A DNA stretch of 35,076 nt from Alloprevotella sp. OH1205_COT-284 (GTDB lineage: Bacteria > Bacteroidota > Bacteroidia > Bacteroidales > Bacteroidaceae): contig NZ_RQYI01000025.1 in the NCBI RefSeq assembly GCF_003859795.1, forward strand, positions 1-35,076. The letters are read 5' to 3'. Both the position numbers and the translations under genes were made by a program. The notes under the pieces are model-generated. The model did not search any database. It was given only the letters and a program-made list of their open reading frames with translations, and was not told where the DNA came from. Positions 34,126 through 35,076 of this stretch are shown one piece after another (position 1 is the stretch's first letter; each line of letters starts with the position of its first letter).

Positions 34126-34198
34126 GATCTGTTAGCTCAGCTGGTAGAGCAATACACTTTTAATGTATGGGTCTTGGGTTCGAGTCCCAAACAGATCA
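34126..34198 (+). tRNA. tRNA-Lys (anticodon TTT)
   Basis: Cloverleaf: acceptor stem GATCTGT (34126-34132) with ACAGATC (34191-34197). The D arm contains AGCTCAGCTGGTAGAGC. The anticodon stem is ATACA/TGTAT around CTTTTAA, with TTT at 34159-34161. The T arm is TTGGG-TTCGAGT-CCCAA, and the discriminator is A34198. The next three bases are CCC, so the CCA tail is not encoded, unlike tRNA-Glu in this window. It reads AAA/AAG lysine codons. Confidence 0.96.
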
Positions 34199-34200
34199 CC

Positions 34201-34246
34201 CAACGAGAATCATCGTTTTCAGATGGTTCTCGTTGTTTTTATTTTA
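34201..34246 (+). terminator. Terminator after tRNA-Lys
   Basis: CAACGAGAATCATC (34201-34214) pairs with GATGGTTCTCGTTG (34222-34235), 14 pairs with one G-T, around a 7-base loop. TTTTTATTTT follows. Confidence 0.9.
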
Positions 34247-34383
34247 ATGAATGGCTGAATCGGAAAACCAAAAACTTGAAAGAATGTTCCGGGGCATAAA
34301 ATGAAATACCGTAAATTTACCACATTGACTTTATCCCTCAAATTTGAGCGTATATCCCTCCTCTCTCTTCCTCGTTGCTGGCG

Positions 34384-35071
34384 ATGGTGTTTCTCGCCAT
34401 GTGTTTCGTGAAATACACGCCTTTCATCGTTTCGTTCATCAGTCTGACGGCCGATGCGATCGTTGTGTATCACTTGCAAGAACCCGATTTGTGGAACATC
34501 TTCAAATTCCTTCTCTGCGCGCAGTTTTTCCTCTGCATGTTAGGCGAATTGCTACGTCGCGTGCTATCCGTACAAGCCCAAGACATCGACCAGCACCACC
34601 GCGAAGCGGCCTTGATGCACGCCGTGAGACTCAACCAACGAGAGATTGAGGCATATTTGCGCATGAGCAGCAACGACACCGACCGACGACGACACCGACC
34701 GCTTGTTTTCGATGCTCAAACCGAGCTCGCAACGCAACATCATCAATGCCGTGCACCAACATTTGCACAACCACCTGTCGGACAGTTGCAACCTCGCCAA
34801 CCTCCTACCCCTGCTCACCAAGTCGAAGGTGGAGGTGTGCAACCTCATCTTGCAGGGAAAGAAACGGAGCGAAATCGACCGGCTGCTCAACAAGACGGAG
34901 AAGAACATTGATGTGGTGCGCGCCCACATCCGCAAAAAACTCAACATCCCCGGCGAACAAGATCTCAAAAAATACCTCATAAAACTGGTTCATCCGACAT
35001 TTGGAGTGATGCGGCAATCGTGCAGCGCATATAGCCTTAACAGAAAATACCTTTCATCCCTAAAACCATAG
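34384..35071 (+). pseudogene. LuxR-type membrane regulator interrupted by a 16-base duplication
   Basis: Two frames together make one protein. The first (from ATG 34384, or TTG 34375) has two likely membrane helices, MVFLAMCFVKYTPFIVSFIS and about WNIFKFLLCAQFFLCMLGEL, then a helical linker ending YLRMSSNDTDR. The second frame continues LFSMLKPSSQRNIINAVHQH and ends in a LuxR/GerE-type helix-turn-helix (LTKSKVEVCNLILQGKKRSE, then LLNKTEKNIDVVRAHIRKKL). At the switch point ACGACACCGACCG occurs twice (34673-34685 and 34689-34701) with a 16-base period. Removing 16 bases joins the frames with no stop, giving 223 residues. As written the gene is broken, either a pseudogene or an off state. Its targets are unknown. 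Confidence 0.75.
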
Positions 35072-35076
35072 GCCAC

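What the first reader, a model, noticed from the sequence alone, without database searches (positions are those of the whole stretch)
34384..35071. A 16-base tandem duplication exactly explains a frameshift in a LuxR-type membrane regulator
The N-terminal membrane half and the C-terminal helix-turn-helix half lie in different frames (offset +1). At the junction the 13-mer ACGACACCGACCG occurs at 34673 and 34689, period 16. Deleting one 16-base unit shifts the frame by just the amount needed and gives a continuous 223-residue protein reading through SSNDTDR-LFSMLKP. A duplication of this kind can arise and revert by slipped-strand mispairing, so the gene could switch on and off between cells. 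It could also be a recent loss or an assembly error.
Basis: partly seen in the sequence, partly recalled or inferred. Interest (0 to 1): 0.72.

Follow-up and report, generated by a model that had tools for sequence, protein, structure and literature searches.

The report
Decayed regulator gene beside a transposon
This is an ordinary broken gene: a remnant of a probable membrane-anchored DNA-binding regulator that has lost its front third, is out of frame in the middle and has a transposable element inserted near its end, so the short repeat at the break is most likely not an on/off switch for a working gene.

Summary
The frame break and the repeated 13-mer are real; the reading built on them is not borne out. 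The window is a whole contig (G000:C18) of a draft genome in the genus of Alloprevotella rava. Eleven intact relatives are single proteins of 332-379 residues. Against them the window gene has three lesions. (1) It begins only at about residue 121, and the missing part was not found elsewhere in the genome. (2) The linker between its two halves is out of frame. (3) An ISL3-family insertion sequence starts at 34987, with an 8-bp target duplication matching contig C40. The repeat is not a full 16-nt tandem copy either: 13 nt match and the 3-nt spacer has no second copy. Losing one unit would restore neither end nor the normal linker, so phase variation is very unlikely. How the 13-mer pair arose (local copying, or small deletion plus chance) stays open. 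An ordinary pseudogene; low interest.

The parts
34126..34200 (+). tRNA-Lys (anticodon ttt), directly upstream of the remnant
   Evidence: ARAGORN
34201..34368 (.). Sequence between the tRNA and the remnant, where the first ~120 codons would be expected
   Evidence: Unique in the own genome at E<=1; against the loci held, one weak 28-base match, E 0.04; relatives' N-part not found elsewhere in the genome
34369..34677 (+). N-half remnant (103 codons, no stop), homologous to about residues 121-226 of the relatives; one codon shorter than them at GELLRR
   Evidence: 52-68% identical to 10 relatives, 64 of 103 to the eleventh
34673..34685 (+). First copy of the 13-mer ACGACACCGACCG
34678..34678 (+). 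Frame junction: one nucleotide stands where relatives have a codon
34689..34701 (+). Second copy of the 13-mer; the spacer 34686-34688 has no second copy
34679..34986 (+). DNA-binding-half remnant (LuxR/GerE HTH), 102 complete codons without a stop, in the other frame
   Evidence: GerE; 56-70% identical to 10 relatives, 66 of 102 to the eleventh
34979..34986 (.). 8-bp target-site duplication ATAAAACT, repeated on contig C40 directly after the IS end
34987..35076 (-). One end of an ISL3-family insertion sequence (28-bp terminal repeat at 34987-35014); the minus strand encodes VAYGFRDERYFLLRLYALHDCRI, the likely transposase C-terminus; the contig ends inside the element

Best explanation
A decaying gene. 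Its ancestor made one protein of about 332-379 residues, hydrophobic in its N-half and with a C-terminal LuxR-type DNA-binding domain, as intact relatives do. In this genome the first third is gone, the linker is out of frame (net two nucleotides short against the relatives), and an ISL3-family element has inserted a few codons before the natural stop. The 13-mer pair lies at the linker break. It most likely dates from the same small local rearrangement (imperfect copying of neighbouring sequence) that shifted the frame; a plain small deletion with a chance likeness is the alternative. Shown: the three lesions, the linker length of the relatives, the target duplication. Inferred: the order of events, how the repeat arose, and that no useful product is made.
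For: Homology starts only at residue 121-122 of the relatives, and no other place in the own genome matches the full protein at E<=1. The stretch EAYL-to-DRLF is 21 residues without a gap in 11 of 11 relatives; the two window pieces align to it with one residue column unfilled. The IS terminal repeat lies at 5 places of the genome, all within 170 bases of a contig end. ATAAAACT flanks both sides, and across the empty site the gene frame continues on C40 to LLLEKEQ-stop; 5 of 11 relatives have LLIEKEY there. A related element carries Zn_ribbon_ISL3 and DDE_Tnp_ISL3. Open full-length relatives exist in the genus: G075 (two), G103, G172, G199. P. dentasini (L026) also holds only a 3' fragment.
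Against: Both pieces are free of stops over 103 and 102 codons and 52-70% identical to relatives, so decay is recent or a fragment could still be used. The 13-mer pair is improbable as pure coincidence: 1 of 40,000 draws from relatives' linker columns, 0.0044 given the window's own residues. The genome is a draft, 95.55% complete by its listing, so the missing 5' part could lie in a gap, though not directly upstream on this contig.
Confidence: 0.93

Rival explanations
1. One reading: a functional one-unit gene gains and loses a 16-nt unit by slipped-strand mispairing and so turns on and off between cells.
For: Two perfect 13-mers 16 nt apart at the frame break; a 16-nt change does alter the frame by the right amount.
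Against: Period-16 identity is 13, not 16; 0 of 11 relatives have the one-unit linker; the gene lacks its first ~120 residues and its 3' end is an insertion sequence.
Confidence: 0.02
2. A variant inside the best explanation, about the linker lesion only: a plain small deletion, the 13-mer pair being a chance likeness of conserved codons (ND.PT and DDTDR).
For: The window aligns with relatives over the linker with no other gap. In relatives the same 13 position pairs agree at 4-9 of 13 (mean 6.2; 9 in A. rava), against a mean of 3.26, and 9 or more at 0.22% of positions, along the same 11 genes: part of the likeness is old.
Against: Simulated chance of a run of 13 or more: 1 of 40,000 draws from relatives' columns, 0.0044 given the window's residues.
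Confidence: 0.35
3. Assembly or sequencing error at the linker in an otherwise intact gene.
For: Draft of 93 contigs; contigs end in the IS; raw reads could not be seen.
Against: The 29-nt repeat region is short enough for ordinary short reads to span (general knowledge); the 5' loss and the IS insertion are independent lesions.
Confidence: 0.04
4. The C-terminal piece is still made as a separate soluble DNA-binding protein with an IS-encoded tail.
For: Open frame of 122 codons from TTG 34703; GerE domain above Pfam's cut-off (24.4 against 23.5 bits).
Against: The 11 relatives compared are single full-length proteins; the one comparable short piece found, L026, looks like another remnant. No promoter or ribosome-binding-site search was run.
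Confidence: 0.03

Closest known systems
Intact LuxR/GerE-type regulators with a hydrophobic N-half in Prevotellaceae (P. multiformis L022, Hoylesella marshii L023, Alloprevotella rava L024)
   Same: The two window pieces align with their C-terminal two thirds, 59-70% identical for these three; GerE domain at the C-terminus of L022 and L024
   Different: The window lacks the first ~120 residues, has the linker out of frame and ends in an insertion sequence
ISL3-family insertion sequences (IS204/IS1001/IS1165 group)
   Same: Terminal inverted repeats, 8-bp target duplication, Zn_ribbon_ISL3 and DDE_Tnp_ISL3 in a related copy, L075
   Different: Only one end is in the window; no complete copy of this genome's element was seen, and the related copy L075 has its transposase in several open pieces
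Phase-variable genes with coding repeats (mechanism recalled; papers seen in a search listing only)
   Same: A short direct repeat at a frame break
   Different: Two copies of 13 nt only, in a gene broken at both ends; no variation shown

Membership tests
LuxR-type regulator family of Prevotellaceae with hydrophobic N-half | C-terminal GerE/LuxR helix-turn-helix | tested here: met
   PF00196 24.4 bits against a cut-off of 23.5
LuxR-type regulator family of Prevotellaceae with hydrophobic N-half | One continuous frame of ~332-379 residues with the complete N-terminal part | tested here: not met
   First ~120 residues absent, linker out of frame, 3' end in an IS
LuxR-type regulator family of Prevotellaceae with hydrophobic N-half | Membrane-spanning N-half | not tested
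   Judged by eye; no membrane predictor was run
Phase-variable gene by slipped-strand mispairing | Repeat tract whose unit number sets the frame of an otherwise intact gene | tested here: not met
   13 of 16 nt repeated; gene broken at both ends; one-unit form in 0 of 11 relatives
Phase-variable gene by slipped-strand mispairing | Both forms present in a population | not testable with these tools
   No reads available
ISL3-family insertion sequence | 8-bp target duplication | tested here: met
   ATAAAACT on both sides; that 8 bp is typical of the family is recalled
ISL3-family insertion sequence | ISL3 transposase domains | tested here: met
   Met in the related copy L075 of another genome, not in the window itself: PF14690 1.8e-7, PF01610 1.5e-25; the window end shares VAYGFRDERYF with it

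The most novel reading that the evidence does not exclude
The DNA-binding half, cut loose from its membrane half by the frame break and given a new tail by the insertion sequence, is still made as a soluble regulator: a membrane-tethered sensor turned into a free one by decay.
Probability: 0.03. Interest if true: 0.4.

Novelty: already known. Interest (0 to 1): 0.1.

Why it matters
It matters mainly as a correction. A short repeat at a frame break looks like a genetic switch until full-length relatives and the contig ends are checked. The locus also links two contigs of this draft genome through an insertion sequence.

Tried and rejected
Rejected: phase variation (both ends of the gene are also lost); a clean 16-nt tandem duplication (run of 13 only; one-unit linker in 0 of 11 relatives). 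Programmed frameshifting was set aside because the relatives compared read in one frame; no slippery-site search was run.

Led nowhere: similarity of the stretch between the tRNA and the remnant; tRNA-Lys(ttt) in 9 relatives, whose flanks were not compared gene by gene; a motif search for the linker in more distant relatives, which matched 2 of 12 and was not used; NCBIfam on three relatives gave no match above a cut-off. Paper searches gave nothing on this locus: Alloprevotella, insertion sequence, pseudogene: 1 paper, not on this; LuxR, transmembrane, Prevotella and others, at least 4 of 5 terms: 6 papers, none judged relevant from title and start of abstract; phase variation terms, at least 5 of 6: 84 papers, 12 listed. 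I saw listings only and read no paper.

Rows dropped: L026 has no complete linker (its ORF starts inside it), so the linker table has 11 of 12 loci. The script stopped with an error on that row; its repeat count over the window was run and its background comparison. In one search the linker was cut at a fixed length of 15 residues, so the equal length rests on the alignments. L030 is the same gene as L024 and was left out of the counts. Distant relatives (L008/L021 and L036-L046) and the second G221 copy, which was not fetched, are not in the linker counts.

Full report
Where it lies. The window is the whole contig C18 of a 2.31-Mb draft genome in 93 contigs, listed as 95.55% complete. Genome G075, listed as the same genus, has a 177,362-bp contig C4 with the same gene and the same length as Alloprevotella rava DSM 22548 NZ_JACICA010000004.1. 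So the window comes from the genus in which GTDB puts A. rava (inferred from that match). Upstream of the finding is tRNA-Lys(ttt) at 34126-34200; the contig ends at 35076.

The observation. The 13-mer ACGACACCGACCG stands at 34673 and 34689. The two halves are open in different forward frames, and the second has a GerE domain at E 2.2e-5. The first is hydrophobic by eye; no membrane predictor was run. The window holds 4 direct-repeat runs of 13 or more at periods 7-60, this one included, against 0 in each of 20 order-2 Markov simulations: such repeats exceed chance, but this one is not alone. The period-16 identity covers 13 positions and ends on both sides. The three spacer bases have no second copy, so it is not a clean 16-nt tandem duplication.

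What intact relatives look like. Scanning genome contigs with the DNA-binding piece, a search that finds close relatives only, gave 5 loci. Four are open over 337-357 residues from the first ATG, and one, P. dentasini, is a 3' fragment. Among 399 genomes drawn from the family, 19 (own included) matched a full-length relative at E<=1e-6. Among 58 of the genus, 6 matched at E<=1e-5, own included, or 5 of 19 of those at least 90% complete and at most 5% contaminated. Open full-length copies in the genus are in G075 (two), G103, G172 and G199, with a distant one in G030. Of three relatives scanned, Pfam finds only GerE above cut-off in each. So the natural protein is one chain, and the gene is patchily present.

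Lesion 1, the front. Matches to the window begin at residue 121 of 337 or 122 of 342, at window 34369. The own genome shows no other match to the full protein at E<=1, and the stretch 34195-34380 matches only itself. In a draft, absence of the missing part is likely, not certain.

Lesion 2, the linker. From EAYL to DRLF, 11 of 11 relatives have 21 residues without a gap. The window's first frame gives EAYLRMSSND and its second gives PTDDDTDRLF; placed on the relatives, one residue column is unfilled, with one nucleotide left there. The net change is two nucleotides short. Elsewhere the N-piece has one further in-frame gap of one codon. How the 13-mer pair arose is less clear. In the relatives the same 13 position pairs agree at 4-9 of 13, mean 6.2, highest in A. 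rava, while along the same 11 genes the mean is 3.26 and 9 or more occurs at 0.22% of 11,144 positions; so part of the likeness is old. A perfect run of 13 or more is still improbable by chance: 1 of 40,000 draws from relatives' columns, 0.0044 of 40,000 given the window's residues. I therefore favour a local copying event that both shifted the frame and made the repeat, with a plain deletion as second choice. Neither is a reversible switch of a working gene.

Lesion 3, the end. From 34987 the window carries GGTTCATCCGACATTTGGAGTGATGCGG, found at 5 places of the genome, all within 170 bases of a contig end. Two have the window's inner sequence (C18, C34) and three the other end (C14, C27, C40). 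A related element in G199 (L075), itself in several open pieces, carries Zn_ribbon_ISL3 and DDE_Tnp_ISL3. The minus strand of the window end reads VAYGFRDERYFLLRLYALHDCRI and shares VAYGFRDERYF with that element's transposase end. ATAAAACT stands directly before the element in the window and directly after it on C40, and across the empty site the gene frame runs to LLLEKEQ-stop; 5 of 11 relatives have LLIEKEY there. The link from C18 to C40 is inferred from these signs; no read spans it here.

Verdict. A regulator gene in decay, broken at the front, in the linker and at the end. Confidence 0.93 for that; 0.02 for the switch. Both pieces remain free of stops (103 and 102 codons), so decay is probably recent or a piece might still be used; nothing here tests expression.

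Noticed in passing
L026, 3968-4333: Prevotella dentasini holds only the 3' third of the same gene, starting within the linker: a second remnant in another species.
   Followed up: partly
G103:C6:511428-512345 (L054): A divergent copy of the regulator (27% identical to the query) with one internal TAG, in a genome that has an open copy on another contig.
   Followed up: no
L022 948-2684 and the like stretch in L023, L025, L031, L032: Open copies are often divergently paired with a TPR protein with an AraC-type HTH_18 domain (Pfam run on L022 only; the others by sequence likeness). In the window genome the 6 matches to it cover only its C-terminal part (within residues 452-574 of 579), 25-34% identical.
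   Followed up: partly
L032 2716-4017, L047 1-1303: Open copies next to a protein with DUF4099, DUF3945 and Toprim_Crpt domains (Pfam run on L032; L047 by likeness), which I recall from conjugative elements: the regulator may travel.
   Followed up: no
G000:C40 (L076): The contig on the other side of the insertion has two tRNA-Lys(ctt) genes and then long ORFs that look like a metal-efflux pump operon (by eye, not scanned).
   Followed up: no
G000:C6 end (L006): A terminal repeat related to that of the IS occurs twice in direct order near a contig end, perhaps another element of the same group.
   Followed up: no
window 10413, 8869, 6415: Three other short direct repeats of 13-15 bases at periods 15, 30 and 33.
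   Followed up: no
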